A stretch of 64,000 nt of DNA, taken from NCBI GenBank assembly GCA_950295325.1, contig OX485809.1:18800144-18864143 (forward strand). Reading direction: 5' to 3'. This document shows positions 22,158 through 52,067 of the stretch, in pieces (positions within the stretch are counted from its first letter, which is position 1; the number at the start of each line of letters is the position of its first letter). The position numbers and the translations under genes are program-made. The stretch comes from Polytrichum commune. Lineage: Eukaryota > Streptophyta > Polytrichopsida > Polytrichales > Polytrichaceae. The notes below the pieces were generated by a model. The model saw only the letters and a program-made list of their open reading frames with translations. It made no database searches and was not told the DNA's origin.

Positions 22158-22175
22158 TGGTGCGTCCGCCGGGAG
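22158..22175 (+). promoter_or_regulatory. Gypsy-1 primer-binding site (putative)
   Basis: TGGTGCGTCCGCCGGGAG starts four bases after the 5' LTR, where a tRNA primer should bind to start minus-strand synthesis. It begins with the expected TGG complement of CCA. I do not assign the tRNA. Confidence 0.5.
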
Positions 22176-29284: not shown

Positions 29285-29322
29285 CTAGGCAACTTACCCT
29301 TGGAGCAAGAGATGTTTGGATT

Positions 29323-29345
29323 CATCCCCCGATGGTCGCCAATTA
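29323..29345 (-). promoter_or_regulatory. PBS-like sequence in inverted orientation at 3' internal end
   Basis: Read on the minus strand, the bases next to the 3' LTR are CTCACA|TAATTGGCGACCATCGGGG. TGGCGACCAT...GGGG is almost the PBS of gypsy-2. On the plus strand this position should hold a polypurine tract, which I cannot see. The element therefore has TAATTGG at both inner LTR borders in opposite orientations. Confidence 0.5.
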
Positions 29346-31493: not shown

Positions 31494-31917
31494 ACAAACT
31501 CATTATAATATTATCAAAGGACCAACTAACAGATGACCAATGGCAAACTTCATGCTCAAAACTAGACCACGTAATACAACAAATCTCAGACAAAATACAA
31601 GAAACTTGTAGTGCACCACCACTCCCGATACTAACAAATCGGACATCTCAACAAGGAGGTTTCCTTCCAAGAAAACTATAAAAAGCACGGAAAAAACATC
31701 TCTCTACATACCATCTAATTATAAAAACAATATACATAGCATAAAATATACAAAATTGGCCAACGCACCCAATAATTGAAGAACTAAGAACTTATACGAA
31801 CGTAACCATACCAACACTCCCAACTGAAGAACAGGACCAACAAGAATGGATACAATCACTAGTAGAAATAGCCAAGACAGCAAAAACACAAGCTCGTAAA
31901 ATCACCACAAAATATAC
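31494..31917 (+). pseudogene. LINE ORF2 linker between endonuclease and RT
   Basis: Decayed coding sequence of the same A/C-rich composition, with several stops. It has no motif of its own and corresponds to the linker before the RT palm. It is cut by gypsy-2 within AATATAC. Confidence 0.5.
31913..31917. repeat. 5-bp target duplication of gypsy-2 (left)
   Basis: TATAC here and at 52068-52072. Confidence 0.95.
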
Positions 31918-33544
31918 TGTGGAGGCACCTTCAACCTTCCAGCCTAAGACGGTGTAACCCGCTGCTGAACCGGTTTACATGGAAGTTACTCCCACCAAAA
32001 TTAGAACTCCTTTTCTCTAAGTCTCGTGAAGGTGTTTGCATTCCTCTGTGTCTCAATTTGGTAACATGTAGCTCCAATGTCCTTATAAACTTTCTAAGAG
32101 TAGTTGGTATAAGATTCCAAGATTATGTTACCGTGAATGTAATGTCAAGGTTTGGTGTTCCTAAACCTTTATATAGATTTAGTATACAATACTTCTTTTG
32201 ATCTAGAATGTGGCGATTGAGACCCTTTCATAAGTCCTTGGGGATATAGTGTCCGAGGTATCAAGTTTATGTTCCCTTAAAGTACTTTCAACGAGAACTA
32301 CTTTTACAATCTTTCTCAGTATGTAGTTCCTTTTAAATAATCTCTTAAATGGATAGGTACCTTAGATCTTAAGATAATGTTCCCTACATCTCTAATGTCA
32401 AGGTTAAGTGTTGTGAAGGGAAATCATTCCTTAAGTCTAATATCTTGTAGATTCACTCCAACTCCTTCATGGTTTGAATGATTAGCGAGTCGTTCGCAAA
32501 CCAAGTATCAATGAAGAAAATGTTTGCAAGCATATTCCCTCACTAAATTATATTTCCCGGCTTTGTATTAAACCCACGGACATGAAAACATTCTTCGTAC
32601 ACTCTCTCCCTTGGTAGCCTTATTCTCAAAAGGGACGGATAAGATCTATCAAATTCCCGAAGATATCCCTCAAAGATAGAGCTTAATTAAGCCTCTCATT
32701 TATCTCTTTAATTCCCTACTCATTTCTCCTCTATCACCTTGGATCGATTTGATAGGTATGATGAGAGAGGATGTTTTGATATGCCCACTTGGCGGACCCT
32801 CAATTGGTAGTAATCATACCCTCATGTGGTGGCGGTGATGTAATTCCAGTAAATCAAATCCGAGGGGTTGCCAAACGTGGAGGCACATAATTCAATTCCC
32901 ACTTTATACTCAAGTATGTGGTACATCCACTTCTAGCCATTAAGTTAGCTTTCATGAGAATCCCAAAACCTAATTCATTCGTAGTCCGTTTTAAGTAAAT
33001 CCCCTTAGGTAAATCTCACATGTAATTCCTAAGTCCTTATCGGATTCTCAACTCAATTCGTACTTCGGGCTCACATAAGTTTTTAATTCTTTTTCTAAAT
33101 CTTTACTCTCTCAAGTTGCTCGGAATTCCTTAATTCTCTTCCGTCGAATGGTAGCATGTTGTGGTAGTGTTCCGATTGCATGCGGGAGCATATGTGGAAA
33201 TCTAATGCCTTGCGGTGCCTATCCTAATGCCATGGATAACACACCTTAGTCCAACAATTGCTCAAGTAGTCGGATAGCAACTTAAAATCCTTTTTAAGCT
33301 CAAGTGTTACTTGTACAAAAATCTTGTGATTGTTCTTCAAAAGATCGCCCTCTTGGGCTTCTTACAAATGTTGTCTCGCGACAAGTTCTTCCTTAGGTAT
33401 TTCACCTAAAGTTTTTGAGCCCTTTAAAATTCCAACCTTAGTCGTTTTCCTTAAGTTAGAAGGAATTTTATCTTCTTTCTAAGTCTTCAATGTATCGTCC
33501 GATTTGTCAATCCTTTCGGTGCAAGAATGGTAACACAATATGGA

Positions 33545-33640
33545 AAGGTATCACATTATCGAACGGTAGCACTTTTATCGAAAGGTAGCACATATAAATC
33601 GAAAGGTAGCACATTTATCGAAAGGTAGCACGCTTGAGGT
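33545..33640. repeat. Short tandem repeat in gypsy-2 LTR
   Basis: Five imperfect copies of ATCGAAAGGTAGCACATTT. It lies downstream of the TATA box in LTR orientation and is present in both LTRs (again at about 51314-51409). Confidence 0.8.
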
Positions 33641-34003
33641 CTCTTGACACTCATGTAAAATTTGCTTGAGCGAATGAAGTGTATTAGGGCCTTCAAGTAG
33701 GCCTCCTTATATAGTCTTCCACATCTAGTTTTAGGTAAGATTAAATAAATGTTATCCTCGGCTAATTTTAGGACTGTATCTATTAATAGCCTGGATCAAA
33801 CGTCTTAAGTCTATAACCCTAAATCTATCCTCCCTAATATGTTTCTAATGACTACATAACTCTTGGGATCCCGTGGTTACATTTTCATCCCAAGTTCATC
33901 CGTCCTTAATCATTTCCCCCACATGTCCTATAACCACGGCGTTGCCACCTCGGCTCATTGCCATTAGCCTGGACCTCTTTAACCGCCACCTTGCCCGTCT
34001 CTG

Positions 34004-34230
34004 TGGCGCTCCCGAGTATGTTCCCGAACGGTTCTTCGCTCCCCAACGTCTTTGGTGTCCCCGACTGCGTTCCCAGCGGCTCTTCGTTCCCAAACATCAT
34101 CTGTGTTCCCGGCTGCGTTCCCGGGCTGGCTTCTTCGCTTTCCAGCCACCTCTGTGTTCCCGACTGCGTTCCCGGCGGCTCTTTGTTCCCAAACATCATA
34201 TGTGTTCCCGGCTGCGTTCCCGGGCGCCTC
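34004..34230. repeat. About 50-bp U3 tandem repeat in gypsy-2 LTR
   Basis: TGTGTTCCCGGCTGCGTTCC-type units start at about 34053, 34102, 34153 and 34201. They sit 70-300 bases into the LTR on the minus strand and upstream of the TATA box, the place of a U3 enhancer. Open frames across this repeat on both strands are by-products of the repeat. The other LTR has it at 51773-51999. Confidence 0.8.
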
Positions 34231-34298
34231 GGGGTTCTCTCCACACCGCCTTGAGCTTCTTGTTCTCCGAGCTGCTGTCGAGGGATGTGAGCTCACCA

Positions 34299-34314
34299 TT
34301 TACCCCCTCCCCTC
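34299..34314 (-). promoter_or_regulatory. Gypsy-2 polypurine tract
   Basis: On the minus strand GAGGGGAGGGGGTAAA abuts the LTR start TGGTGAGC. It primes plus-strand synthesis. The stop codon of the 992-codon ORF overlaps its beginning. Confidence 0.85.
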
Positions 34315-37291
34315 AGAGAAAGCATGTCCCCATGCTTTTTGGGCTCATTTGTTGGTTGCTAATGTGATAACGTGGCTGAAACAGCAATGTACCGCTGTTG
34401 AGAGCTCCGAAGTACTTGTGGGAGATCGCTGTTTGTTGAGCTTCGAGGGTGGCATTCACAAAGTCTTTTACTTGGCTCAGATTTGGCTGTATGGTAGGGT
34501 GTTGGATGGGGACCGCCTGATGCTGCTGCACTGCTTCGAAGCAAATTGCGGTATCCTCCGCCGCTAAGGTTAATAGGGCTTGATTGAATTCTTTGGTGTA
34601 ATCTCGTTGCATCCTCCTGATGAGATGGAACTGGCCATGTGAGTATGATTTGAGAATGGGGAGTGATTCCCTGGGTACTCTGGTTATATTGCGGTGTTGT
34701 GCCCACAGCTTGACACATCGCAAAATGTATCTCTTGACGTAGAAGGGGGGAGAAGCTGTAAGCATTTCTATCACCCCTAAAGGCGTCTTGATTTCTCCTA
34801 GGCACCACATAAACACTAATGTATCACGGGCTGCAGCATTTGCTTGGCTCCATATTTCCTTCATTTGGGCAAATTCCAGCTTGCACCCTGTTTTCAATAA
34901 AGGAATGTTACTGAGCAACAAGTTTAATCCGCCATACACACGGTGGTACTGCATTAATGAGTCCAAAGGTTCAGTGTGCTTGAGGAATTGTTGCACGATC
35001 TCTGTTCTGGGGTGTATGGCTGTGTGAGGGATGGTGCTTTCCCCGGATTCATCCTGCTGCTTGTGGAGTCTTTGAGCGAGATCGGCGTTTTCCTGTTGAG
35101 TTCTGGTCAGATCTCTTCTGAGTTCATTCAGAAGTTTGCTCGCAACCCCAGAGGCCAAGGTATGTTTTTCTTTGTTCATGATCGGGTGAGGCGAACTGCG
35201 CTCGTGTTCAAGGTTACTTCTGGTTGAGAGCAGGTGTGTCTTCCCTTCCCCTGCTGAGATCTGTGCTATCAATTTGTGCTTGTCTTTGTTGAGCTGTTGT
35301 ATCTCCTGCTGGTAATCCGCCACCTTGGACTCGAGCCTGGTGATGTCACTCTTCCTGCGATCGTCCAATCCATCGCTTCTCTTCAACATGTCTCTCATCT
35401 CAGCAATGTAGTCGTTCAAGCGGCTAATTTCGGCGTCTTTACCCTGCAATTGTTGTGCTTGGTCATCGATCACCTGCTGGAGTTTTGTGAATTTCCCCAG
35501 GGTCTCGGCATTCTGGCCTCTCAAACCCCGGGTTTCTTCCTCGGCGAATTCCAGTTTGTCTCGCAATGTGGTCAGTTCTTGCTGATTCTGATGCGTGCCA
35601 GTGTGGATTTCTGCTCTTAACCCTGCCACTTCCTCCTCCTGATCTGCTAACAGGGTTTCAAAGGAGTGTTCCACATACAGGTCAATTAATTCCTCTGCAT
35701 TGGTTAGTTTTGCCTCTAATTCTGCATGTTTTTCAGTCGTGGTTTGGAGCTTGCTTAGCTGTTCGAGGGCTTCGTCCTTCTGTCCTTTTAAGGACACGAT
35801 TTCCTCCTTAGCCTGCTCCCATTTGGTTCTGAATGTGGCTAATTCCTCTTCCAGGCGGAAGATGGTCTCGGTGTTAATATCGTTCAGGCTGTCTGTATTG
35901 TCCAGCCGTTGTGCTAAGTGCTGAAGTTGCACCTTCTGGGATTTAAGTAACACTTCTGACCCAGTATCAGTAGCCTTTCCCAGGCTTTCTTTTAGGATGC
36001 TCTCCCTTTGTATCTTAAAGAACTCGTCATTCATTCGGTTTATCAGTCCTTGTGGGGCCTTGCTGGTAAAAGAAGAAAGTAAATTTTCTAACCTGCGATG
36101 TGCTTGGCCTATTTGCTCTACCATGGCAGGTAGAGGGTTTGGGAGTTGGCGTCTCTCTGTTGTCTCCAGGATGACCTTCTTCTCTGGAGCTTTCGATGAG
36201 GTGTCTGCAGGTTGCACTGCGACCGAGTACACTTGGGCAGCCTTCCTTGGTTCTCTTTTTGTGGTAGCTTCTTTCTGCCAAGCTGGTCGCTGTCGAATCA
36301 CGGTTTGTGTTTCTGGTGACTCCTTGGCATCCACAGTCTTGGGCTTCTTTGGGACAGGTCGTTGCTCCTCCAAGGTGAGAGCTCTTTCACTCCTGTACCC
36401 AACCTCCAATTCTTCCCTGATGTTGAGCACACCTCCTGCCTTGAGGATCAGAGTTAAATGAGGCCCTACAGAAGTTTTCTCCACCTTTACCCTAGTAGCC
36501 AGGTGCTTGTTGTGTAATGTTGTGAGTTCTTCTGTGATCTCGTGATAGAACTCTTGCGGCCAATCTGCTCCTTGGCCATTTAGTGCCGCGACAACCATTT
36601 CCACAAAGGCCAGGGTTATGGAATTTTGGTGTGTTGGATTGAGACAGAAGATTGAGCTTAACAGCCTCAAAGGTCTCCTCGCACCAGGGTGCTGGCAATC
36701 TGATATGTGCACCGTGTCCTTTTCCGGATTCTCTTTCAATGTGGGAAACAGTTTTGTGACTTTCCATTGCCTTGTCACTGGTTGTGCTTCCTTCTTAGTT
36801 AATTGGAATGTATGTTTGAACTGCTCCCTCCAATCCTCGGCAATGAGCCTGACCTTTTCCCCTTTCACAGTAGTCCAGAAGGTGTCCGGCTCCAATGCTG
36901 CGATTGCCTCAGTGACTAATGGAGAGTGCAATACTCCCCAAGAGTTTGAGGTAAGGAAGTCCTCAAGGTTGAGTTTCTTCAGGAATTCTCTCTCTCCTGG
37001 GGTTAACTGGTATTTGAGAGCTGGATCAATACTGAATGCATACAAGACATCTTGTCTGTCTTCTGGTCCTCTCTTCATGGTGTCTGTGAGCTCAAGAATT
37101 CCTTCTTCTCTGGATAATGCCTCCCTAAGAACTGCCTGAAATGTATGGAGCTTGCAAGTCGGGGAGTACCATTGTGACTTACCCGAGTGCCAATGGACTT
37201 GAGAGAATGCTTGAAGGCAGGTGAGCTGCACCCCCTTCCAGAATCTGCCGTTCGCATCCAGTTTAGGTTGATAAACATTCGGACACTCCAT
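34313..37291 (-). CDS. Gypsy-2 third ORF, long coiled-coil protein
   Basis: A 992-codon frame from ATG 37291 to a TGA in the polypurine tract. It lies downstream of pol in the same orientation, the position of env in retroviruses, but I see no signal peptide, membrane segment or furin-like site. Residues about 1-320 look globular, with W-rich patches (FWKGVQLTCLQAF, HWHSGKSQWYSPTCKL) and VEKTSVGPHLTLILKAGGVL. About 400-740 is a long coiled coil rich in E, K, Q and L. About 770-990 is helical, with LWAQHRNITRVPRESLPIL. There is no enzyme motif. It could be a structural or trafficking protein, or a captured host gene. The frame is intact, which suggests recent function. Confidence 0.8.
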   Translation of the reverse strand: MECPNVYQPKLDANGRFWKGVQLTCLQAFSQVHWHSGKSQWYSPTCKLHTFQAVLREALSREEGILELTDTMKRGPEDRQDVLYAFSIDPALKYQLTPGEREFLKKLNLEDFLTSNSWGVLHSPLVTEAIAALEPDTFWTTVKGEKVRLIAEDWREQFKHTFQLTKKEAQPVTRQWKVTKLFPTLKENPEKDTVHISDCQHPGARRPLRLLSSIFCLNPTHQNSITLAFVEMVVAALNGQGADWPQEFYHEITEELTTLHNKHLATRVKVEKTSVGPHLTLILKAGGVLNIREELEVGYRSERALTLEEQRPVPKKPKTVDAKESPETQTVIRQRPAWQKEATTKREPRKAAQVYSVAVQPADTSSKAPEKKVILETTERRQLPNPLPAMVEQIGQAHRRLENLLSSFTSKAPQGLINRMNDEFFKIQRESILKESLGKATDTGSEVLLKSQKVQLQHLAQRLDNTDSLNDINTETIFRLEEELATFRTKWEQAKEEIVSLKGQKDEALEQLSKLQTTTEKHAELEAKLTNAEELIDLYVEHSFETLLADQEEEVAGLRAEIHTGTHQNQQELTTLRDKLEFAEEETRGLRGQNAETLGKFTKLQQVIDDQAQQLQGKDAEISRLNDYIAEMRDMLKRSDGLDDRRKSDITRLESKVADYQQEIQQLNKDKHKLIAQISAGEGKTHLLSTRSNLEHERSSPHPIMNKEKHTLASGVASKLLNELRRDLTRTQQENADLAQRLHKQQDESGESTIPHTAIHPRTEIVQQFLKHTEPLDSLMQYHRVYGGLNLLLSNIPLLKTGCKLEFAQMKEIWSQANAAARDTLVFMWCLGEIKTPLGVIEMLTASPPFYVKRYILRCVKLWAQHRNITRVPRESLPILKSYSHGQFHLIRRMQRDYTKEFNQALLTLAAEDTAICFEAVQQHQAVPIQHPTIQPNLSQVKDFVNATLEAQQTAISHKYFGALNSGTLLFQPRYHISNQQMSPKSMGTCFL

Positions 37292-39081: not shown

Positions 39082-42000
39082 TTACTTGGGAAAATGATCC
39101 GTCCTACCCGCCCTTAAGCCTAGTGGGGTAGGGTAAGTGGGGTTAGCATCCTTCTTAGGGGTTTCTACCGTGATAAGTTTGGATTTCCTAAGGATGTCTC
39201 CTAGGTGGTTTATGGGGGTATTATTTCCCTTTAAGGGGTTGGTTAGATCATGACACATGGGTTGGGGGTTGTTGCCCTCCAGTGGTGTAGGTTGTGTCCA
39301 ATAAACTTCTAACATGACTCGATGGACCTCTAAGTCCTCTGCATCTAAGGTTGCCTGATCCGGATATTTGGTAGATCCGGTGTGTGGGGTGATCTTTTCC
39401 TTAGATGGGGTAGTGGGGAATTGGGTTATGCTATCCCTTTTGGGTGAATGGTTTTGTTTATTTTTAATCTCAGCTTCTAAAATATGACATGCTAATATTT
39501 GTAAGGCATAAGCTTGGGTAGTCTCCGGCTCTTGATATGGTTTGAGTTTGTTCATGTTAACGCGGCCTAAACTTTCTCCTTGCAGGGTGGTAACGTCCAC
39601 TGATCCGTTATCATAGACTTGTTCAACTAGATATGGTCCTGCCCAACGTATTTTGAACTTGCCCGGTCCGGGTATTTTATGGCGTAAGTGCCACAAGATT
39701 CTTTGGCCGGGGTGAAATCGTGTTTTGGTTACGGCCGGTAGCTCGGCCTCTTCACTCCTTGGGGAGTGCTTGGATTTCTTCGTGTCTTGCATAATTCCTT
39801 CCTCCAAAGTATCATGCCGTTTGGCTTTCTTCTGGGAAATTTTACTTGTTCCGTGGTGACACTGCTTACAATGTGTCCGTTTCCGAGGTCGGTCATGCCT
39901 ATCTTTGCGCAATAATTGCATGTGCCTCATGTTTCTTTCTGCTTCATGTCGAGTTAAATCGATGATTTGGAGTTGCTCCATCCTTTTCTTAAGAATGGGA
40001 TGTATATCCTGGCTCCTTTGTTGGTGAACGTCAGGATGTAGGTAGGCCATAGGTAACAAAGCTTCTGTCCCAAATACTAAAGAGAATGGGGTGTGCTTTG
40101 TTGTCACCTTATAGGCTGTCCTATATGCCCAAAGTGCTGCATGCAACTTGGTGTCCCAATCTGTTCGGTTGGCGTTGACCATTTTGGTTAGGGCGATCTT
40201 GATCACTTTGTTGGTGCTCTCAGCTTGCCCGTTAGCTTGTGGGTAATAGGTTGTTGACTTTCGATGTAAAATCATAAATTCTTGAGTGAGCACTTTGATG
40301 GTGTCGTTAATAAAATGACTTCCTTGATCGCTTACAAACTCCAATGGGCATCCGAATTTTGTGATTATTTCCTCAAAGAGGAATTTGGCTGTTGATTTAG
40401 CCGTGTTGTCTTTTAGGGCTCTTGATTCCACCCACTTGGTGGTGTAGTCAGTTGCTGTAATAATGTACCGATTATTGGTACCTTTAGCTGGCGGGTTGAC
40501 TGGTCCAATGAAATCCAAACCCCATTTCTGAAAGACCTCAGTAGGCATTGTGGGATGTAAGGGTTGGAGATTGGTTGAAGTCTTGGGGCCAACTCTTTGA
40601 CAAATATCGCATTGGGTGCAATATAAATAAACATCTCTTTTCATGGTGGGCCACCAATACAAGGCAGTCAATACCTTGTGTAGGGTAATGTTGGCTGAGA
40701 AATGCCCTCCGGCAATTCCCTCATGAGCCTCCGCAATAATGGCAGTAGTTATTGGCCCGTTCACACATATTCTCCGTAAGCCATCAGGGCCTTCTTTGAT
40801 CAAGGTCCCATCGTGGGTTAACCAATACGGCCTACTGCGTATTGCTATTTGTTGTCGTTGGGTGGTCGATGCCTCCGTGGTCAATCGACCATGCTTCAAA
40901 TAGTCAATGAAAGGAGCTCTCCAATCAAGTTCCTCCTTGTCTTTGCTTGTGACCGTTTGGCAGTCGATCACATGTTTTGGGGTTTCTCGAGGCTGACACT
41001 GCACACAGTTCTTACAGAGATGATCGATGTCTGGCGGTATTGTGGGCCACCAGTAAGGTCCTGAAGCGACCCGCGAGATCATCTCATCCATTGAGAGATG
41101 TGGGGATCTCTGTTTATGTATGTTTGTTAGCCATTCGATCCCCTCATCTTGGGAGATACACAATTTGATGTCTCCATTTAACCTTCGGCTCAATATATCT
41201 TCTTCCAAGAAATAATCGGATATTTCTTCCTTCAATATCCCTAACTCTTCTTGGAATACCAGTTCGCTTAATTCCATCGGTTGCTTGAGGTGTTGTATGA
41301 TTGGTTCTCGCCAATCCTGTGCCTTACCTCTTCTAAACGGGATGGCTCCATACTTCCCAATTTGGGAGCTTAACGTTGTCCCAAGTGGACATATCCGACA
41401 TTCGTCAATCAAATGTTTCACGTCTGGAGAGATAGTCGGCCACCAATACGGGCCTTCGTGCACTTGAGCAATTGTTTCTTCTGCAGACAAGTGTGGTATT
41501 TGATTTTCATGGACCCGTCTTACCCAATCGATGGCGTCTCCTTTTGTGATACACATTTTCACCTCTCCACCAGGTAATTGATATTTCAACCCGTCCTTGG
41601 TTTTGAAATACATTTCAGCATTCGGGTCAAGTAATCCCGTATCCTCCGGGGTGTCAACAAAGTTCCAATCTTCAAAACTCTCCAGTCGTTGTATAACTGA
41701 GCGCCTCCAATCCTGCTTGGATGTTGTTTCTGGGAGCGTCGCGCTTTGACTCCCTTCAGTGTGGTTTTCTAGGGTCTCTGTTCCTGTACAACTTTCGCAA
41801 TGTTTTAGGTAGTTGCACACGTCCTGTCCCCACGTTGGCCACCAATATGCCCCGGTGGCTACGGCCTTCCAGGTTTCTATGGCTGCCAAATGGGGCATGC
41901 TTTGCCCATGAATCTTAGCTAAGTACGCGGGTACTTGAGTCTCTGGTATACACATCTGGTTACTCCTTCCTCCTCTGCGTATCCGTTGCAAAGTACCGTT

Positions 42001-44343
42001 GGTGAACACGAAATGCTTATGGCTTTGCTCCACCGCTTTTCTTACCTCTTGTGGTAAGGCTTGGTCGAAGATTTTTCCGCATGTTAGGTACTCCAAATAT
42101 GGACGTCTCCAATCTAGGCTCTTCTCACCTAGAAGTGTTTGTGTTTCCTTTTCTGTTGCAAGCCCGACTTGGTAGCTGCATACTGGGCATTTCCCGTTGC
42201 ATAAGTTCTTGATGTCGGACCCGCACGTGGGCCACCAATATGGCCCAAACATGGACAAGTGCCATGTGGTCTCCATGCTAGGATGCTCTCCTGTGTCCGT
42301 GATATGTAATTCTTGTAGGTATTTGTTTACCTCATGACCGGCAATGCATATCTTGACTTCCCCGTTTGATAGTATTCTTTTCAATTTGCCTTCTTCAATA
42401 AAGTATTCCCGGCTCTGGCGGGCAATCCTCTTCTGTTGTCCTTTCGAAATGTGGGGCCCCTTAAGGTACCCGTAGGTGAGGTACTCAATCAATAATTTCC
42501 TCCAATCCTTGGTTTTCTGGGGCTGTGCCACAATGGACCCACATATTATGTTATGGTATGGGCCTATAAATCGCTCTCGACAGGCTCGGCAATCATACTC
42601 AATGTATAATTGTACATCACTTAGCCCCATCGTGGGCCACCACCGGTTCCCGTTCAAACATCGGAGCCAAGTGTATTGATCGTTGATGTGCACATTTCGA
42701 TAGACATGCATTCGTGCTATATAATGCTTTATTTGATAGTCCGCAATGCATATCTTTGCCCGTCCATTCTTTTCTAACTTCCGGAGTTTCCCTTTCTCCA
42801 CTGTGAAGAACTCACTCTCTCGTATAAGCTCTTGTTGCCTTCTTTGAGTCTCCATGTCCATTTTGAATATTCCCCGTGTCTTGTATTCAACCAGGGGTGT
42901 TCTCCAATCATTGAAGGTTTCTTTGTAGGGTATTATTTCCGTCTCCGGACTAGGTTGGGAAGAGCTTGCTTCTGTTGGCAATTCTTCTCCCTGCCCTTTG
43001 CATCCAGTGCACAGCGTGATGAGTAGTGAAACATCCTCCGCTATGGTTGGCCACCAATAAGGGCCTTGCAGTACCAGTTGCCTGGTGGCATTTATCGAGA
43101 AATGCCGGTTTTCATTTACATGGAGGGTCTTGATGTAACTCCTCACATATCTTCCCGGTATACATTTCTTTATGATGCTGTTGTGAAACATGCGATGTAG
43201 TTCCCCTTCTTTGAGTATGAAGAATCGACTGCGGTAAACAAGCAGTTTCCTTTCTTCCAGGGGTAGGGAACTCACCCACGGGGTCCCGTAGGTTTGACAG
43301 GTTAGATATTGGACGTAAGGTGTTGTCCAATCCGGTTCCGCTTTCCCATCCATGTCTTCTTGTGCCTCCAACGGTTTGATGGGAAGTGGGTCGTCGTCGT
43401 CTTCGGAGTCATGTGGGGTGGGTTCCCCAATTAAGTCAGCTTGGTCTGACATTTTGCATACTGGGCATTCATTACAGTATCCCACTACGTCTCTTCGCCG
43501 TGTAGGCCACCAATAAGGTGCGCGTAATACATATTGCCACGTCGTAGACAGAGTGTAGTGCACTCCGTCTTGTTCATGAGCTTCACTTATAATTTCTTCG
43601 ATGATGTCCCCGGCTATGCATTCATGTATTTTGCCGGAGATACTAATTCGCACGAGCTTTCCTTCCTCCAACATGAATGGTTCACTAAGCTGTCGAATTC
43701 TCTTCTGTGCTTCCGGGGTAGTGAGTACGGACAATAGTTTTCCGTGTGTAAGATACTCAATAAAAGGTGCTCGCCAGTCTTGAAAAGGCTGCACACGTAC
43801 CATGAACAAACTCGTATCTGGGAATTGATCCTGCACCCCTGAGGGTTCTTCTCCACTTTCAATTCTCGATAAGTGATCCGCCATGACATGACTTCTACCA
43901 GGCTTGTAGACCACTTCAAAGTCGTATTCCTGAAGCAAAAGCATCCATCTTGCAATACGCCCGGATACTACTGGTCTATTGACCAAGTATATCAACGCTT
44001 GATGGTCCACGTAGAAGACAAAATGGTTGGCTAGTAGGTAGTGCCTAAATTTGCCCACCGAATAAATCATTGCTAGAGCTTCGCGCTCCGTTGTGCTGTA
44101 GTTCTTCTCAGCACTGTTCAAAAGTCGGCTTGCATAATGAATTGGAGAATCTCTATCTCCATGTATGTTCTGGGCCAAAACGGCTCCAATAGCTATGTTG
44201 GACGCATCACAGTGCACGTGGAAGTCCATTGTCCAATTGGGAGTTATGAGAATGGGTGTCAAAGGCCTCCTGACAAGACTTGGTCCAAATGTACTTTTCT
44301 CCTTTCTTAAGCAATAAGTACAAGGGCCGAGTGATATCCGCAT
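39082..44343 (-). CDS. pol: Gypsy-2 Pol C-terminal part: RNase H and integrase with eight HHCC modules
   Basis: Open for 1753 codons. RNase H starts at HCDASN (about residue 46) and ends ADHLSRI. Then, instead of one integrase zinc domain, eight modules follow. Each has D-W-R-x-P near its start, a G-x-L/I-x-R strand, (M/I)CI or equivalent, H-x5/6-H, (Y/R)WWPT and C-x2-C. The WWPT boxes lie at 43501, 43045, 42631, 42226, 41833, 41434, 41041 and 40645 (152, 138, 135, 131, 133, 131 and 132 codons apart). All eight keep both His and both Cys. The last is canonical (HEGIAGGHFS ... CTQCDICQR) and joins the catalytic core: D about 1277 (WGLDFIG), D 1339, E 1375, D-35-E. A GPYLVEQVY end follows at about 1568, then about 180 unassigned residues. 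The true pol start lies in the upstream frame. Confidence 0.9.
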   Translation of the reverse strand: MRISLGPCTYCLRKEKSTFGPSLVRRPLTPILITPNWTMDFHVHCDASNIAIGAVLAQNIHGDRDSPIHYASRLLNSAEKNYSTTEREALAMIYSVGKFRHYLLANHFVFYVDHQALIYLVNRPVVSGRIARWMLLLQEYDFEVVYKPGRSHVMADHLSRIESGEEPSGVQDQFPDTSLFMVRVQPFQDWRAPFIEYLTHGKLLSVLTTPEAQKRIRQLSEPFMLEEGKLVRISISGKIHECIAGDIIEEIISEAHEQDGVHYTLSTTWQYVLRAPYWWPTRRRDVVGYCNECPVCKMSDQADLIGEPTPHDSEDDDDPLPIKPLEAQEDMDGKAEPDWTTPYVQYLTCQTYGTPWVSSLPLEERKLLVYRSRFFILKEGELHRMFHNSIIKKCIPGRYVRSYIKTLHVNENRHFSINATRQLVLQGPYWWPTIAEDVSLLITLCTGCKGQGEELPTEASSSQPSPETEIIPYKETFNDWRTPLVEYKTRGIFKMDMETQRRQQELIRESEFFTVEKGKLRKLEKNGRAKICIADYQIKHYIARMHVYRNVHINDQYTWLRCLNGNRWWPTMGLSDVQLYIEYDCRACRERFIGPYHNIICGSIVAQPQKTKDWRKLLIEYLTYGYLKGPHISKGQQKRIARQSREYFIEEGKLKRILSNGEVKICIAGHEVNKYLQELHITDTGEHPSMETTWHLSMFGPYWWPTCGSDIKNLCNGKCPVCSYQVGLATEKETQTLLGEKSLDWRRPYLEYLTCGKIFDQALPQEVRKAVEQSHKHFVFTNGTLQRIRRGGRSNQMCIPETQVPAYLAKIHGQSMPHLAAIETWKAVATGAYWWPTWGQDVCNYLKHCESCTGTETLENHTEGSQSATLPETTSKQDWRRSVIQRLESFEDWNFVDTPEDTGLLDPNAEMYFKTKDGLKYQLPGGEVKMCITKGDAIDWVRRVHENQIPHLSAEETIAQVHEGPYWWPTISPDVKHLIDECRICPLGTTLSSQIGKYGAIPFRRGKAQDWREPIIQHLKQPMELSELVFQEELGILKEEISDYFLEEDILSRRLNGDIKLCISQDEGIEWLTNIHKQRSPHLSMDEMISRVASGPYWWPTIPPDIDHLCKNCVQCQPRETPKHVIDCQTVTSKDKEELDWRAPFIDYLKHGRLTTEASTTQRQQIAIRSRPYWLTHDGTLIKEGPDGLRRICVNGPITTAIIAEAHEGIAGGHFSANITLHKVLTALYWWPTMKRDVYLYCTQCDICQRVGPKTSTNLQPLHPTMPTEVFQKWGLDFIGPVNPPAKGTNNRYIITATDYTTKWVESRALKDNTAKSTAKFLFEEIITKFGCPLEFVSDQGSHFINDTIKVLTQEFMILHRKSTTYYPQANGQAESTNKVIKIALTKMVNANRTDWDTKLHAALWAYRTAYKVTTKHTPFSLVFGTEALLPMAYLHPDVHQQRSQDIHPILKKRMEQLQIIDLTRHEAERNMRHMQLLRKDRHDRPRKRTHCKQCHHGTSKISQKKAKRHDTLEEGIMQDTKKSKHSPRSEEAELPAVTKTRFHPGQRILWHLRHKIPGPGKFKIRWAGPYLVEQVYDNGSVDVTTLQGESLGRVNMNKLKPYQEPETTQAYALQILACHILEAEIKNKQNHSPKRDSITQFPTTPSKEKITPHTGSTKYPDQATLDAEDLEVHRVMLEVYWTQPTPLEGNNPQPMCHDLTNPLKGNNTPINHLGDILRKSKLITVETPKKDANPTYPTPLGLRAGRTDHFPK
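40587..43782 (-). repeat. Array of eight integrase-type zinc-binding modules
   Basis: Protein-level tandem repeat of about 131-152 residues spanning some 1065 residues. At DNA level the modules are strongly diverged; only the boxes around WWPT (GGCCACCAATA on plus) are obviously alike. The array is therefore old and has been kept in frame. Confidence 0.9.
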
Positions 44344-47300
44344 ACATCCATATAAACTTACGGTGATAAGTGGCTTGGCCTAGGAAGCTCCGGATTCCCC
44401 GTACTGTGGTTGGTGGGGGTAGCTCTTTGATGACTCCCACCTTTTTAGGGTCCACCAGCAATCCTTCCTGGCATACCACATGTCCAAGGAGTCTCCCGGA
44501 GTTTACGCAGAAATAACATTTCTCCGGGTTCAGGCTGACCCCATTTTCGCGGCATTTGACGAGACACTTCTCCAAGTGCTCAATATGGTCTCCCTTGGTC
44601 CCATATACGGTAAAGTCATCCAGAAAAACCTTCATGAATTTGTCGAGATAATCGGCAAAGATTTTCATCATACCCCTTTGGAATGTGGCTGGTGCACACA
44701 TCAATCCGAAGGGCATCACTCGGTATGCGAATGCTCCATACTCGGTGATGAAAGAGGTCTTCAGCTGGTCTTCTAGCGCGATCATGATTTGGTTGTACCC
44801 GCTGTACCCGTCCATCAACGTGTACATTTCGTGTCCTGCAACCGCTTCCAAGATTGATTCTGTAAAAGGTAGAGGAAAAGGGTCTACCTTGGTGACTGCG
44901 TTGAGTTTGCGGTAGTCGACGCATACTCGTAATTTCCCATTCTTCTTGGGCACAATCACAATTGGTGATAACCATTCCGTTTTGTCAACGGGGTATATGA
45001 ATCCTGCCTCCAAGTATTTGTCGATTTCTTCTTTGACCTTGGCGGCGTAATTGGGATTCATTCTATAGCGCATTTGCCTTACAGGCTTGGCCTCAGGCTG
45101 CAACTCGATCTTATGCTCGCATATATATGGAGGTATTCCCTTCATGTCTTTGTATGTAAAGGCGAACACGTCCTTAAATTTCAATAGCAATTCTTTTACT
45201 TGTGCTTCATAGTCACCTAAATCCTTGGCTATCTTGACCAACTTAGGATCCTCCGGAGTACCTAAGTTCAAGTTTTTGACCAAGTCTTCATCCTCAACCG
45301 TCCATCCGGCTATCTTTTTCCCCTTGACAGCTTCTGAAGCAGGGGTACGGTCTACTATTATGTCTCCTTCTTTTGCTTTGTAAAACTGGGAGGGGTATAC
45401 AGGCTTTTCCTCCATAGCCTCTTGTTCTTTCTTGGTCGCTTTCCTCGACCGAGGTTTCTCGGATTTACCTCCCTGTGGTGTAGGTGTTCCGATAGTATCA
45501 ATCTCCATTGTATTGCAACTTGGCTCTTGTAGCTTCCTCAAGCTTTTCAAGTCGAAATCTCCCATGGGGAGTAGTTCGGGGAAGGCCTCATAAACTATGG
45601 CTTCTTCTTCATCCGATAGTCCCATCTCCCAGTCGTAATCCTCCCAATGCAAAGGTCTCTTTGCAGGTGATAGGGCTGGTGTTCTCCGGGTACTTACTTC
45701 CACCTTGTTCCCTCCTTGGGTCAAGGTCAGTTTGTTAAGGGGCCAGTCATGTTGAGCTTGTGCCTCCTTCAACCAAGGTCTTCCCAATAATAGAGAGTAA
45801 CTGTCTTCAGTATTCACCATGTCTATAACAGTGAGTGTTGTCTGGATTATAATCCCGCCAACATCAAGGCGTACGTCCCGGATAATTCCTTTGGGCATGA
45901 CTTTTCTTTGGTCAGCCATTTTTATGGTAAATGGTGCGGGCTCTATTTTCTTGAGTCCTAATTGCTTCCTTAACGTGTCCGTGATGATGTTCACTCCTGA
46001 TCCACCATCAATTAAGGCATTCGGTACCTGCCTGTTCTTTACAATTACGGATATCATGGGCATCTCTTCATCAAATGCCTTCGCCGTAACTTGATATGTT
46101 TGAGTCGGTTCCTTCGACTTCTCTTCATGTGCCAACGCCGCCATTATTCGCTTCTTGCAATAAGGGGCTATCTCAAGTAATTGTCCGACTGATATGTTTG
46201 CTTTCGTGTGATTCATCACACTTTCCAAGATCTTATCTACCCGTGCCTGGGTAGTTACTGGGACGCCTCCTTTCTCGGGGCTCCGTTCTGTGGGCTTCTC
46301 TGCCTCTTCCTTTTCTGGGTACCAAGGTGCGAACTCCTCTGGCGTGGGTAGAGCTTCGCCCTCTTCCTCCTGTATCTCCTGGATGGTCTTGCTCACCTCC
46401 CGGTGGACTTCCCTATCCGCTTTCCATTCTTCACTGTTGGCCCCTATCGGCCGTTCTTCAATCACTTCGTTGCGTCCGTTATCCTCGAACGCGTCATCCC
46501 TTTCATCTTCAGAGTTCTCCTCTCTCTTTTGGTGGTCTTCTTGCTCCTCCGAGCTGCCACTGCTCGATTCATCATCCTCATCATCATTGTCGTCACTCTC
46601 ACTATCTTCCTTGCCTTCCTCGGCTGCAGCCCGTTGGGCTCTTGTCATTACACAAACCGCAGGGGACACCACATTGGCTCCTACTGCCGGTTTCGTGTTT
46701 CTAAATCCACTGAACTCCTGTTGGTGTTTAATAAAGTGCGGACAATCCGGCTTCCGGTGCCCCTTCTGATGACAATAAAAACACTCGTCGGGGTTGCCAT
46801 CTCGTTGTGGTCCGCCAGTGAACCCAGTTCTCGGCGCTGCCTTGGTGTTGTTATTATCCATCAGGCTTCTGGTATATTCATACCTGTCATGGTTGATAGG
46901 TCCTCTGGGGCCTCCTCGGTAGGGGTATCCATCTTCCCTCCGGAAATCTTGGGTTTTGTAAGGGAAATAACCTTCCCTTCTGAAATCATCCTTGTAGCTA
47001 TCATTGGGCCTGTAATAAGGCCGATCATCTCTGCGATATTCATTTCCCCGGTAGGGGCCTCCCGCCTCCCGCCGGTAATCGCCTTCCCTATAAGGGGATC
47101 TCTCTTCTCTTCTATATTCCATTCTTGGTTCAAACCGAACTCTCTTTTCATTCATTTCCCGCCTAGGAGTTATCGCTCCTGGCCTTCGATTAGTTTGGGG
47201 TTGCACTTGATTTACCCCATATCTCCTATCTCGGGGTCTCCGAGATTCGTGCCGTTCATAGACACATTCACTTGTGTTATGCGTTAGGCTGTTGCAGTTG

Positions 47301-48814
47301 GTGCACTGCTTCATCTGACACTCCTGCACGTAGTGTCCTTCATTTCGGCATCTCCGGCAGATGATGCCTGTTCGAAATTTCCTGCTCCCTAGAGCCAGTC
47401 CTTCAATCTCTTCCCTGAGGGTCTTTATGTCATCTTTGGTAGAGTCGTTTCTCTTACCCTTTGACTTCCTCTTCTTTTTCTTGCGTTCTTCTTCCGAGTC
47501 ATCGCTCGAGTCGTCGCTGTCACTCTCATCGAGGAATCTTCCTTTCCTCATTTGACCTAGCTCCAATTTCCGAGCTGAGGCCTTGGCTTCGTCTAAGTCA
47601 TCGGTCGGCATGAGATCAATGTGTTTGGCATACTCCTTCTTAAGGCCATTAAGAAACCATGCCTTCTTGAATTGATTGCTGGGTTGGGGATTTATCTTCG
47701 ATGATTCCACCATAACCCTTTCGTAAAATTCTTCAATTGTTTCATCTTTCTTCTGCTTCAGGGATCCTAGACTCTCAATCACTTCTCCCTCCGATTTCTT
47801 GGATCTAAATCTCATAAGAAAGGCAGCTCCCAAGGAGGGCCAATCCGGAAAATGATGTGGGCCGAATTGAGAATACCATTCTAGTGCTCGCTTCTTCAAA
47901 GTAACTGGAAATAATTGTAGCTTGATTGCGTCGGTGTCTTCCTGGTTGGCAAGACAAACATTGTTAAATTCTTGCATGTACGTATCATGATCAGTCTTAC
48001 CTTTATAGGTCGGTAAAGGAACCTTCGTTCTTCGTGGTTGAGCGGCCATGTTGGCCGGGTTAGATGGGTTGTTTCCAAAACTTGGTACGTTGTTGTTGTT
48101 GGCTAGTGGTGGGCTGACTCCGGGGTTATTTCCAAGGTTTTGGAATTGCTTGAGTCTCTCCTCAAATTTTCTCCTCAATTCGTCAACTTCCTCTTGACTG
48201 ATAGGTTTCTTCACTTCTTGGTCCGTGTTGTTTTGCGTGCTTCCTCCAGAAAAGCCGCAGTCTTCGTAACTAAATTGGTTCTCAAAATTCCTCTTCAATT
48301 CCTCCCAATTCCTTTGGGTGAAAAGGTCTTCCTTGGTCGTGTTACCTTGAGGGGTTTTACCCTTATCCTGCGCCCCACTTACCGGGTTATGTGTGCCGGT
48401 GTTTTCGCTGGTTCCTTTCGTTCTCAAAACATAGGTCCCAAGAGGGGTTCCTATTATCGAGTCATCTTCGTCCTCACTTCCTCCGTGAAGTGAGTTGTAT
48501 TCATTTCTGTATTTATCTTCTTTGTATGTCCTGTCGTTATCTCCTCCTTCACTCTGACTTCTTTGGTGGATGGGTTTGGTGGTGTGGGAACCTACTGCCG
48601 GTGGCTCAGAAGCATTTCTGTTTTCTTCTTCTCTTGTGGTTCTTTGACGCGTACGCCTCGCGTACCTCTCTTCTCTTTCTCTCTTCTGCTGTTCGTTCCG
48701 TCTCACGGAATTATCTCCGAAATGCATGCGCTCCACATGCCTCCGTTCGGCTTCTCGTTCCCTTGGGGTTGGTGATGTGCTTCTTGTGCTAGATGTATCC
48801 TCATGGTCAACCAT
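44207..48814 (-). CDS. gag-pol: Gypsy-2 Gag-protease-RT
   Basis: A frame of 1535 codons from ATG 48814. Residues about 1-230 are charged and low-complexity. A Gag domain follows (LPTYKGKTDHDTYMQEF, ALEWYSQF, FYERVMVESSK; about 260-420). Zinc knuckle 1, CRRCRNEGHYVQEC, is at about 485; an arginine/proline/tyrosine-rich stretch with RRE and PYR repeats (about 540-640); zinc knuckle 2, CFYCHQKGHRKPDC, about 677; an acidic stretch; protease with IDGGSG (about 936); RT with CVDYRKLN, MPFGLMCAP and FLDDF (about 1397). The frame leaves pol just after CQEAFD (about 44265) and ends in 17 unrelated codons. Compared with gypsy-1, about eight residues between the RT connection and RNase H are missing, so a small deletion has put RNase H-integrase in another frame. 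Confidence 0.9.
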   Translation of the reverse strand: MVDHEDTSSTRSTSPTPREREAERRHVERMHFGDNSVRRNEQQKREREERYARRTRQRTTREEENRNASEPPAVGSHTTKPIHQRSQSEGGDNDRTYKEDKYRNEYNSLHGGSEDEDDSIIGTPLGTYVLRTKGTSENTGTHNPVSGAQDKGKTPQGNTTKEDLFTQRNWEELKRNFENQFSYEDCGFSGGSTQNNTDQEVKKPISQEEVDELRRKFEERLKQFQNLGNNPGVSPPLANNNNVPSFGNNPSNPANMAAQPRRTKVPLPTYKGKTDHDTYMQEFNNVCLANQEDTDAIKLQLFPVTLKKRALEWYSQFGPHHFPDWPSLGAAFLMRFRSKKSEGEVIESLGSLKQKKDETIEEFYERVMVESSKINPQPSNQFKKAWFLNGLKKEYAKHIDLMPTDDLDEAKASARKLELGQMRKGRFLDESDSDDSSDDSEEERKKKKRKSKGKRNDSTKDDIKTLREEIEGLALGSRKFRTGIICRRCRNEGHYVQECQMKQCTNCNSLTHNTSECVYERHESRRPRDRRYGVNQVQPQTNRRPGAITPRREMNEKRVRFEPRMEYRREERSPYREGDYRREAGGPYRGNEYRRDDRPYYRPNDSYKDDFRREGYFPYKTQDFRREDGYPYRGGPRGPINHDRYEYTRSLMDNNNTKAAPRTGFTGGPQRDGNPDECFYCHQKGHRKPDCPHFIKHQQEFSGFRNTKPAVGANVVSPAVCVMTRAQRAAAEEGKEDSESDDNDDEDDESSSGSSEEQEDHQKREENSEDERDDAFEDNGRNEVIEERPIGANSEEWKADREVHREVSKTIQEIQEEEGEALPTPEEFAPWYPEKEEAEKPTERSPEKGGVPVTTQARVDKILESVMNHTKANISVGQLLEIAPYCKKRIMAALAHEEKSKEPTQTYQVTAKAFDEEMPMISVIVKNRQVPNALIDGGSGVNIITDTLRKQLGLKKIEPAPFTIKMADQRKVMPKGIIRDVRLDVGGIIIQTTLTVIDMVNTEDSYSLLLGRPWLKEAQAQHDWPLNKLTLTQGGNKVEVSTRRTPALSPAKRPLHWEDYDWEMGLSDEEEAIVYEAFPELLPMGDFDLKSLRKLQEPSCNTMEIDTIGTPTPQGGKSEKPRSRKATKKEQEAMEEKPVYPSQFYKAKEGDIIVDRTPASEAVKGKKIAGWTVEDEDLVKNLNLGTPEDPKLVKIAKDLGDYEAQVKELLLKFKDVFAFTYKDMKGIPPYICEHKIELQPEAKPVRQMRYRMNPNYAAKVKEEIDKYLEAGFIYPVDKTEWLSPIVIVPKKNGKLRVCVDYRKLNAVTKVDPFPLPFTESILEAVAGHEMYTLMDGYSGYNQIMIALEDQLKTSFITEYGAFAYRVMPFGLMCAPATFQRGMMKIFADYLDKFMKVFLDDFTVYGTKGDHIEHLEKCLVKCRENGVSLNPEKCYFCVNSGRLLGHVVCQEGLLVDPKKVGVIKELPPPTTVRGIRSFLGQATYHRKFIWMYADITRPLYLLLKKGEKYIWTKSCQEAFDTHSHNSQLDNGLPRAL
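44255..44268 (-). other. Frame break between RT and RNase H in gypsy-2
   Basis: CQEAFD in one frame is followed almost at once by TPILITPNW in the other. In gypsy-1 the matching motifs (CQKAFE and PVLIPPNW) are separated by about nine residues. A deletion of roughly 23-26 bases is the simplest cause. A programmed shift is less likely because residues are lost. Confidence 0.7.
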
Positions 48815-48958: not shown

Positions 48959-49651
48959 CTAGTCGGACTCCTGTTTTCCCACCCTACCGTTCAAACCACC
49001 ATACAGAGGTAAAAATATTCTCTTAACATACAAATCGTACAACAATCCTTCTTGCTTGTAATGATAACCTCGATGTCGAGTTGTTCCTAGTACATAGGCG
49101 CTAATTCCCTCTCTTCCGTCATTCCATACCTTGGAAATGATCAATGCTTGTAGTTCTTCAGGTAACTCATTAAGACTTTTCTCAAATTGGGATCGGTATG
49201 TAAAACCTATCTCTCTTTCCTTATATAGTTGCCATGTTTTATCTTCGTAGATCTTCTGCATATCCCACATTAAATCGTGAAATTTCTTGGTTCCTTCCCA
49301 TCTCCTCAACGCTGGCTTGCTTGTATCATATTTTGGATACTCCCACGGCCATCTTCCTAAGGCCAAGGTTCCTTGCTGTTTCAATTCTTCTTCTTCAATT
49401 TCTTCTTCACGTCCTTGCAAAATGAATCCTCGTAGATTGAACTGTTCGAGTCTCCGCTGCACAGCTCTTTCTATCCGGTCTTGTTTCCTCGGTCCAAATG
49501 TTTCCGCCCACTTACGTTGCTCATTCGCCTCTCGTTGGCGTCTCCCGTTATATAGGTAATACAAATTCTCCATTGTTGCCTGCCATCCAGCTCTTTTCCC
49601 AAAACATAATATGTTTGTAAATTCTATCTCTAATCTAGGTAAGTGTAACAT
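48959..49651 (-). CDS. Gypsy-2 pre-gag ORF, unknown protein
   Basis: A 230-codon frame from ATG 49651, only 34 bases from the 5' LTR and on the same strand as gag. The protein is rich in charged and aromatic residues (MENLYYLYNGRRQREANEQ, GRWPWEYPKYDTSKPALRRW, DLMWDMQKIYEDKTWQLY) and appears mostly helical, with an E-rich segment near residue 85. No domain recognised. Ogre-type elements also carry an ORF before gag; I infer analogy from position, not from sequence. The intact frame in a young element suggests it is expressed. Confidence 0.75.
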   Translation of the reverse strand: MLHLPRLEIEFTNILCFGKRAGWQATMENLYYLYNGRRQREANEQRKWAETFGPRKQDRIERAVQRRLEQFNLRGFILQGREEEIEEEELKQQGTLALGRWPWEYPKYDTSKPALRRWEGTKKFHDLMWDMQKIYEDKTWQLYKEREIGFTYRSQFEKSLNELPEELQALIISKVWNDGREGISAYVLGTTRHRGYHYKQEGLLYDLYVKRIFLPLYGGLNGRVGKQESD

Positions 49652-49665
49652 CCATGCGGCGCAAT

Positions 49666-49682
49666 CCCCAGCATGGTCGCCA
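49666..49682 (-). promoter_or_regulatory. Gypsy-2 primer-binding site
   Basis: On the minus strand the LTR end CCTCCACA is followed by TTT and TGGCGACCATGCTGGGG. This starts with TGG and resembles the tRNA-Arg-type PBS that I recall for Ogre elements. Confidence 0.75.
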
Positions 49683-49685
49683 AAA

Positions 49686-52067
49686 TGTGGAGGCCACCTT
49701 CAACCTTCCAGCCTAAGACGGTGTAACCCGCTGCTGAACCGGTTTACATGGAAGTTACTCCCACCAAAATTAGAACTCCTTTTCTCTAAGTCTCGTGAAG
49801 GTGTTTGCATTCCTCTGTGTCTCAATTTGGTAACATGTAGCTCCAATGTCCTTATAAACTTTCTAAGAGTAGTTGGTATAAGATTCCAAGATTATGTTAC
49901 CGTGAATGTAATGTCAAGGTTTGGTGTTCCTAAACCTTTATATAGATTTAGTATACAATACTTCTTTTGATCTAGAATGTGGCGATTGAGACCCTTTCAT
50001 AAGTCCTTGGGGATATAGTGTCCGAGGTATCAAGTTTATGTTCCCTTAAAGTACTTTCAACGAGAACTACTTTTACAATCTTTCTCAGTATGTAGTTCCT
50101 TTTAAATAATCTCTTAAATGGATAGGTACCTTAGATCTTAAGATAATGTTCCCTACATCTCTAATGTCAAGGTTAAGTGTTGTGAAGGGAAATCATTCCT
50201 TAAGTCTAATATCTTGTAGATTCACTCCAACTCCTTCATGGTTTGAATGATTAGCGAGTCGTTCGCAAACCAAGTATCAATGAAGAAAATGTTTGCAAGC
50301 ATATTCCCTCACTAAATTATATTTCCCGGCTTTGTATTAAACCCACGGACATGAAAACATTCTTCGTACACTCTCTCCCTTGGTAGCCTTATTCTCAAAA
50401 GGGACGGATAAGATCTATCAAATTCCCGAAGATATCCCTCAAAGATAGAGCTTAATTAAGCCTCTCATTTATCTCTTTAATTCCCTACTCATTTCTCCTC
50501 TATCACCTTGGATCGATTTGATAGGTATGATGAGAGAGGATGTTTTGATATGCCCACTTGGCGGACCCTCAATTGGTAGTAATCATACCCTCATGTGGTG
50601 GCGGTGATGTAATTCCAGTAAATCAAATCCGAGGGGTTGCCAAACGTGGAGGCACATAATTCAATTCCCACTTTATACTCAAGTATGTGGTACATCCACT
50701 TCTAGCCATTAAGTTAGCTTTCATGAGAATCCCAAAACCTAATTCATTCGTAGTCCGTTTTAAGTAAATCCCCTTAGGTAAATCTCACATGTAATTCCTA
50801 AGTCCTTATCGGATTCTCAACTCAATTCGTACTTCGGGCTCACATAAGTTTTTAATTCTTTTTCTAAATCTTTACTCTCTCAAGTTGCTCGGAATTCCTT
50901 AATTCTCTTCCGTCGAATGGTAGCATGTTGTGGTAGTGTTCCGATTGCATGCGGGAGCATATGTGGAAATCTAATGCCTTGCGGTGCCTATCCTAATGCC
51001 ATGGATAACACACCTTAGTCCAACAATTGCTCAAGTAGTCGGATAGCAACTTAAAATCCTTTTTAAGCTCAAGTGTTACTTGTACAAAAATCTTGTGATT
51101 GTTCTTCAAAAGATCGCCCTCTTGGGCTTCTTACAAATGTTGTCTCGCGACAAGTTCTTCCTTAGGTATTTCACCTAAAGTTTTTGAGCCCTTTAAAATT
51201 CCAACCTTAGTCGTTTTCCTTAAGTTAGAAGGAATTTTATCTTCTTTCTAAGTCTTCAATGTATCGTCCGATTTGTCAATCCTTTCGGTGCAAGAATGGT
51301 AACACAATATGGAAAGGTATCACATTATCGAACGGTAGCACTTTTATCGAAAGGTAGCACATATAAATCGAAAGGTAGCACATTTATCGAAAGGTAGCAC
51401 GCTTGAGGTCTCTTGACACTCATGTAAAATTTGCTTGAGCGAATGAAGTGTATTAGGGCCTTCAAGTAGGCCTCCTTATATAGTCTTCCACATCTAGTTT
51501 TAGGTAAGATTAAATAAATGTTATCCTCGGCTAATTTTAGGACTGTATCTATTAATAGCCTGGATCAAACGTCTTAAGTCTATAACCCTAAATCTATCCT
51601 CCCTAATATGTTTCTAATGACTACATAACTCTTGGGATCCCGTGGTTACATTTTCATCCCAAGTTCATCCGTCCTTAATCATTTCCCCCACATGTCCTAT
51701 AACCACGGCGTTGCCACCTCGGCTCATTGCCATTAGCCTGGACCTCTTTAACCGCCACCTTGCCCGTCTCTGTGGCGCTCCCGAGTATGTTCCCGAACGG
51801 TTCTTCGCTCCCCAACGTCTTTGGTGTCCCCGACTGCGTTCCCAGCGGCTCTTCGTTCCCAAACATCATCTGTGTTCCCGGCTGCGTTCCCGGGCTGGCT
51901 TCTTCGCTTTCCAGCCACCTCTGTGTTCCCGACTGCGTTCCCGGCGGCTCTTTGTTCCCAAACATCATATGTGTTCCCGGCTGCGTTCCCGGGCGCCTCG
52001 GGGTTCTCTCCACACCGCCTCGAGCTTCTTGTTCTCCGAGCTGCTGTCGAGGGATGTGAGCTCACCA
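49686..52067 (-). repeat. Gypsy-2 5' LTR
   Basis: 2382 bp, one base longer than the other LTR (GGCCACC against GGCACC at its inner end). Confidence 0.95.
51474..51483 (-). promoter_or_regulatory. TATA box in gypsy-2 5' LTR
   Basis: CTATATAAGG on the minus strand, about 585 bases into the LTR and downstream of the U3 repeats. It is the likely promoter of the element. Confidence 0.7.

What the first reader, a model, noticed from the sequence alone, without database searches (positions are those of the whole stretch)
40587..43782. Integrase with eight tandem HHCC zinc-binding modules
Normal gypsy integrases, including gypsy-1 in this window, have one HHCC domain before the catalytic core. Gypsy-2 has eight in a row, 131-152 residues apart, each with H-x5/6-H, a WWPT box and C-x2-C, in an uninterrupted frame of 1753 codons. 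Sequence between modules has diverged strongly while all 32 zinc ligands are kept. This points to long-term selection rather than a recent duplication or an assembly artefact. The repeated unit also includes the DWRxP linker before the HHCC domain, so a whole RNase H-integrase linker module was amplified. Possible roles are extended binding of LTR ends or target DNA, chromatin tethering, or intasome architecture. I know of no described retroelement of this kind.
Basis: partly seen in the sequence, partly recalled or inferred. Interest (0 to 1): 0.92.

Follow-up and report, generated by a model that had tools for sequence, protein, structure and literature searches.

The report
Retrotransposon integrase with eight stacked N-termini
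A young plant-type jumping gene carries an integrase whose front part has been copied into a chain of eight units, or eleven in sister copies, and natural selection has kept the units, an arrangement for which we found no description.

The parts
31913..31917 (.). target-site duplication, left copy (TATAC)
   Evidence: read; same 5 bases at 52068-52072
31918..34298 (-). 3' LTR (TG...CA ends)
   Evidence: one substitution and one indel against the 5' LTR within these limits
34303..34314 (-). polypurine tract next to 3' LTR (approximate limits)
   Evidence: read
34313..37291 (-). 992-aa extra ORF downstream of pol, coiled-coil-like, function unknown
   Evidence: HAP1_N E 6e-5 but below Pfam's cut-off
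39529..39726 (-). integrase C-terminal domain with GPY/F motif (about aa 1540-1605, limits by eye)
   Evidence: motif seen; the name GPY/F is recalled
40240..40542 (-). integrase catalytic core (rve), D1277, D1339, E1375 (DX35E)
40558..40926 (-). module 8 (aa 1140-1262), next to the core; groups with single NTDs of other elements
40927..41316 (-). module 7 (aa 1010-1139)
41317..41712 (-). module 6 (aa 878-1009); both zinc His lost in one sister clade
41713..42114 (-). module 5 (aa 744-877)
42115..42507 (-). module 4 (aa 613-743), modelled
42508..42909 (-). module 3 (aa 479-612); HHCC present, no Integrase_H2C2 hit alone
42910..43332 (-). module 2 (aa 338-478)
43333..43779 (-). module 1 (aa 189-337) with acidic linker at its end
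43924..44232 (-). RNase H (RT_RNaseH, aa 38-140)
39082..44343 (-). 1753-codon frame: RNase H, 8 x NED-NTD, core, CTD, tail
44207..48814 (-). gag, protease and RT frame (1535 aa; three CCHC knuckles, DGGSG, FLDDF)
48959..49651 (-). 230-aa ORF upstream of gag, no family over its cut-off
49665..49682 (-). primer-binding-site-like stretch 3 nt after the 5' LTR
   Evidence: read; no tRNA was matched to it
49686..52067 (-). 5' LTR
52068..52072 (.). target-site duplication, right copy (TATAC)
   Evidence: read

Best explanation
It is a Ty3/gypsy LTR retrotransposon whose integrase carries an array of 8 (sister copies: 8 or 11) complete integrase N-terminal units (NED plus HHCC zinc domain) ahead of one catalytic core and one C-terminal domain. 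SHOWN: the array, its age, its position-by-position orthology, purifying selection, changes of array length by a three-module block, and mosaic ancestry of the array. INFERRED: module 8 keeps the ordinary NED-NTD job in the intasome (LTR-end holding and synapsis). Modules 1-7 keep the zinc-held fold but have specialised surfaces, and act as a flexible chain of binding modules that tethers integrase to a partner by many weak contacts. The partner may be a host chromatin or transcription factor, Gag, or integrase itself. The precedent is the Ty3 NED, said to stabilise LTR contact and reported to interact with TFIIIC.
Against: No binding partner, expression or transposition was tested. The doublet model rests on four rows, so a flexible linker is weakly supported. 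Positional orthology over large dS could equally reflect a fixed architecture. Modules 2-5 are neutral to basic in all eight loci tabulated, so nucleic-acid binding by some modules is not excluded.
Confidence: 0.4

Rival explanations
1. Intasome architecture: the extra NED-NTD units replace, within one chain, the N-terminal domains that outer integrase subunits supply in other intasomes, so that each module packs at a fixed place.
For: Each position is conserved across lineages; the modelled module is the NED-NTD unit of PFV and Ty3 integrase, and Ty3 and PFV intasomes are tetramers (passages).
Against: Array length is 8 or 11 in close relatives, one module lost both zinc His in a clade, and blocks of modules were swapped between lineages.
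Confidence: 0.22
2. Extended nucleic-acid binding: the array clamps long stretches of LTR, target DNA or genomic RNA in the particle.
For: The Ty3 NED is said to stabilise LTR contacts (passages); modules 2-5 are neutral to basic in all eight loci tabulated, module 3 at +4 to +9.
Against: Modules 1-7 of the window are net acidic (pI 6.1, charge -16); modules 1 and 6 are acidic in all eight loci tabulated and module 7 in seven.
Confidence: 0.15
3. The array is a tolerated by-product: tandem duplication during reverse transcription, kept passively, with selection only against misfolding or frameshift of the polyprotein.
For: Modules 1-7 have several times the dN/dS of RT and core; one clade lost a zinc site and still spread.
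Against: Eight positions survive across lineages with large dS, core columns (D, W, L, C, WWP, HHCC) are near invariant, and no usable pair has dN/dS of 1 or more. About 950 extra codons would be easy to lose by deletion.
Confidence: 0.15
4. The array is cut off by the element's protease and works as a separate protein.
For: Linkers between modules vary; polyprotein context.
Against: No cleavage site was identified; in the 23 loci with clean arrays all modules share one frame, and where printed that frame is shared with RNase H and most cores.
Confidence: 0.08

Closest known systems
Ty3 integrase (PDB 7q5b)
   Different: one NED-NTD
Prototype foamy virus integrase (PDB 3l2q, 3oyi)
   Different: one NED-NTD; retrovirus
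Two-module gypsy proteins P0006, P0011, P0021 (unnamed public sequences)
   Same: two adjacent NED-NTD-like units before the core, HHCC read by eye in both
   Different: only two; own clade (SH-aLRT 100), so probably an independent duplication
Gypsy polyproteins of Riccia sorocarpa, and gypsy-1 in this window
   Same: nearest named relatives of module 8 plus core (41-45% identity); gypsy-1 has the same pol order
   Different: one module in 7 of 8 Riccia rows and none found in the eighth, P0040; one in gypsy-1
Tat lineage with a second RNase H (aRH)
   Same: a plant gypsy lineage that gained an extra domain, in Ogre and Retand between RH and INT (PMC6317226, passages)
   Different: the gain is an RNase H, not repeated integrase N-termini

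Membership tests
Ty3/gypsy LTR retrotransposon | LTRs, TSD, and gag-PR-RT-RNaseH-INT order | tested here: met
   (protease matches are below Pfam's cut-off; DGGSG seen)
Ty3/gypsy LTR retrotransposon | integrase with HHCC domain, DDE core and CTD | tested here: met
   (CTD by motif only)
Ty3/gypsy LTR retrotransposon | single N-terminal zinc unit in the integrase (usual architecture, not a formal criterion) | tested here: not met
   eight in the window, 8 or 11 in sister copies
PFV/Ty3-type NED-NTD fold (modules) | NED plus HHCC fold | tested here: met
   module 4 alone was modelled singly; the profile of all eight hits PFV over profile positions 32-114 of 132
Tat lineage | additional (archaeal-type) RNase H | tested here: not met
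   no second RNase H among Pfam hits at E <= 0.01 of the two pol frames
Chromovirus | C-terminal chromodomain | tested here: not met
   no chromodomain among Pfam hits at E <= 0.01
Phygy | short element, NCGN target preference | tested here: not met
   20.15 kb; TSD TATAC, one insertion only; features from PMC6317226 passages
Athila | placement in RT-RH-INT phylogeny with reference elements | not tested
   no classified reference set was at hand

The most novel reading that the evidence does not exclude
The retrotransposon turned its own integrase N-terminus into an evolvable, position-specific binding array. Modules are duplicated in three-module blocks, specialised by position and reshuffled between lineages by template switching, giving combinatorial choice of host partner or target, in the way that tandem zinc-finger or TALE arrays do, but made from NED-NTD units.
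Probability: 0.12. Interest if true: 0.93.

Novelty: new variant of a known kind. Interest (0 to 1): 0.8.

Why it matters
Integrase domain order is treated as nearly fixed across retroviruses and LTR retrotransposons (general knowledge). An old, selected and recently mobile family with up to eleven N-terminal units on one catalytic core breaks that rule. It also gives a natural experiment on what the NED-NTD can do apart from the core. A graded series exists: one module in other gypsy families of the same genome, two in a separate clade, eight and eleven here.

Tried and rejected
Assembly artefact or recent tandem duplication: rejected; modules are 27-38% identical to module 4 and many loci share them. 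Positive selection: leaving out the near-identical L014, the array is 62-86% identical in the full-length matches while RT is 96-98%, which first looked like diversifying selection; dS is high as well, and dN/dS stays below 1 in every usable pair. Pairs with dS under 0.1 were not used; between L013 and L014 three modules have a few amino-acid changes and no synonymous one, too few to judge.

Not done: RNase H-only and core-only searches of the own genome, meant to look for gypsy-2 copies with one module, did not complete.

Full report
WHAT IS THERE. The frame 39082-44343 on the minus strand codes for 1753 residues without a stop. Pfam finds RNase H (aa 38-140), seven Integrase_H2C2 stretches and the rve core. 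Eight modules run from residue 189 to 1262 (lengths 123-149), each opening with DWR or DWT and each with H-x5/6-H, WWPT and C-x2-C. Scanned singly, seven pass Pfam's cut-off (26.0-56.4 bits against 25.5); module 3 has no H2C2 hit although its ligands are present. The other modules are 27-38% identical to module 4. The core has D1277, D1339 and E1375 with 35 residues between the last two, and a GPY/F-type C-terminal motif follows.

THE ELEMENT. The array belongs to a structurally complete insertion, 31918-52067. Its TG...CA LTRs of 2381 and 2382 bp differ by one substitution and one indel within their limits, and it has a 5-bp target-site duplication TATAC, a PBS-like stretch and a polypurine tract (limits read by eye). 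Gag, protease and RT lie in the neighbouring frame 44207-48814. A 230-aa ORF precedes gag and a 992-aa coiled-coil-like ORF follows pol; neither has a family over its cut-off. So the insertion is recent. This copy's pol frame is broken: against L014, 26 nt are missing between RT and RNase H; the other 25 loci or upstream pieces measured have 86-87 nt there and the window copy 61. Of the 30 loci cut out, 5 (L022, L026, L028, L031, L032) lie in open frames of 3264-3716 residues with no stop in the match.

OTHER COPIES. A search of the host genome (407.8 Mb, unnamed) with modules 1-7 gave 50 matches; 48 of 1040 candidates were scored, so counts are lower bounds. Thirty were cut out. With a profile built from the window's modules, 23 of 30 have 8 (16 loci) or 11 (7 loci) module hits in one frame; the first module of L016 is partial. 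The remaining seven (L023, L035, L038-L042) are split over frames or incomplete. In the loci and upstream pieces printed, RT and RNase H lie directly upstream of the array. Not every copy is whole: the stretch taken as RNase H does not align in L016 and L019 (17-20% identity), and the core breaks frame in L014 and L029. As controls, 12 of 12 loci of other gypsy families (L001-L012) have one module. In the search with the two-module protein P0006, the RT-RNase H match and the last-module-core match lie within 24 nt of each other or overlap at 41 of 41 scored loci, leaving no room for an array. No gypsy-2 relative with one module was seen, but the array was the query, and the unbiased searches did not complete.

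AGE AND SELECTION. In a tree of 100 modules from 11 loci, positions 1-5 counted from the core are each one clade (support 0.91-1.0). The extra modules 9 and 10 of the eleven-module loci fall with positions 6 and 7 (0.98 and 1.0), and 11 beside position 8, so 9-11 are a copy of the block 6-8. In L036, which has eight, modules 6 and 7 group with 9 and 10; its module 8 groups with 11 but with the other eights. So L036 probably reached eight by losing the other block. Eight and eleven are scattered over the RT and core trees. RT is 96-98% identical to the window's in all but L014, with dS about 1 or more in all but L014 and L015 (RT was not obtained for every locus), so most lineages are old. Median dN/dS over pairs with dS 0.1-1: RT 0.021, RNase H 0.05, modules 1 to 7 0.117, 0.159, 0.185, 0.18, 0.218, 0.23 and 0.166, module 8 0.055, core 0.03; no pair reached 1 (L014, L027 and L032 dropped as redundant or broken, and regions with dN of 0.5 or more left out). 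Neighbouring regions often differ greatly in dS within one pair (L028-L034, L019-L034, L020-L037), which indicates recombination with breaks between modules.

LIGANDS. Of 205 modules from 23 loci, 188 match the full HHCC/WWPT-like pattern. Of 17 misses, 11 are the third-from-last module. Ten of these (L022, L024, L025, L027, L028, L030-L034) replace the two His by Tyr and Pro, and one (L016) has unread codons at the WW pair. The other six are single cases; at least one (the last module of L037) keeps all four ligands and failed on a flanking letter. Counting distinct sequences, each ligand is 88-100% conserved at every other position, against means of 80-95% for other columns. So the zinc site is held, with one clade-wide exception.

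BEYOND THIS GENOME. The 65 proteins most like module 8 plus core (E <= 0.001) have one module hit in 59, none in one, and two in five; in three of those five (P0006, P0011, P0021) the two are adjacent. These three form a clade away from gypsy-2 (SH-aLRT 100), and their first modules form their own clade. Searching with modules 2-5 gave 22 unnamed public proteins; 18 have three or more module hits, end pieces counted. Fifteen match the window's positions in the same order; six (P0080, P0085, P0086, P0088, P0090, P0091) have inner modules only distantly like any position; P0092 has one. The HHCC pattern was matched in 45 of the 75 module hits; many of the rest are end pieces, and this was not examined further. 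These sequences could come from the same or a close species. The nearest named relatives are of the liverwort Riccia sorocarpa, then seed plants and Chara, so a bryophyte host is likely (inference).

MECHANISM. Module 8 behaves like the canonical NTD: basic, slow, and grouped with single NTDs. Modules 1-7 keep the fold's core residues but diverge; their charges are typical of each position (in all eight loci tabulated module 1 acidic, 3 basic, 6 acidic), and together those of the window are acidic. Variable length, a lost zinc site and swapped blocks argue against a rigid machine. I therefore favour a flexible chain of binding modules. [quoted passage not shown] Partner and function are unknown.

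LITERATURE. Seven answered searches on repeated integrase zinc domains or related lineages (listings only) showed no such element. In PMC6317226, a plant-wide survey, the passages read mention aRH and chromodomains as extra domains and no repeated integrase N-terminus. Most subscription papers and preprints are outside the library searched.

Noticed in passing
20386-31113: Gypsy-1: a second very young gypsy element (LTRs of 1768 bp, 100% identical; TSD CACTC read) with one 2079-aa gag-pol frame and a single module.
   Followed up: partly
34313-37291 (-): A 992-aa coiled-coil-like ORF between pol and the 3' LTR of gypsy-2; no Pfam family over its cut-off.
   Followed up: partly
48959-49651 (-): A 230-aa ORF between the 5' LTR and gag with no family over its cut-off.
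   Followed up: no
44207-44343: The gag-RT and RNase H-integrase frames overlap because this copy lacks 26 nt present in sister copies; it is therefore probably not autonomous.
   Followed up: yes
L028, L034, L019, L020, L037: Mosaic ancestry: dS jumps between neighbouring modules within one pair of loci, suggesting block exchange by recombination.
   Followed up: partly
56979-58451 (+): 490-aa ORF with an RNase H domain (Pfam E 6e-15), possibly the end of a non-LTR element.
   Followed up: no
54286-54659: Tandem repeats of about 125 nt, three copies, outside gypsy-2.
   Followed up: no
34032-34225 and 51801-51994: A 95-nt stretch repeated at 99-nt spacing inside each LTR of gypsy-2.
   Followed up: no
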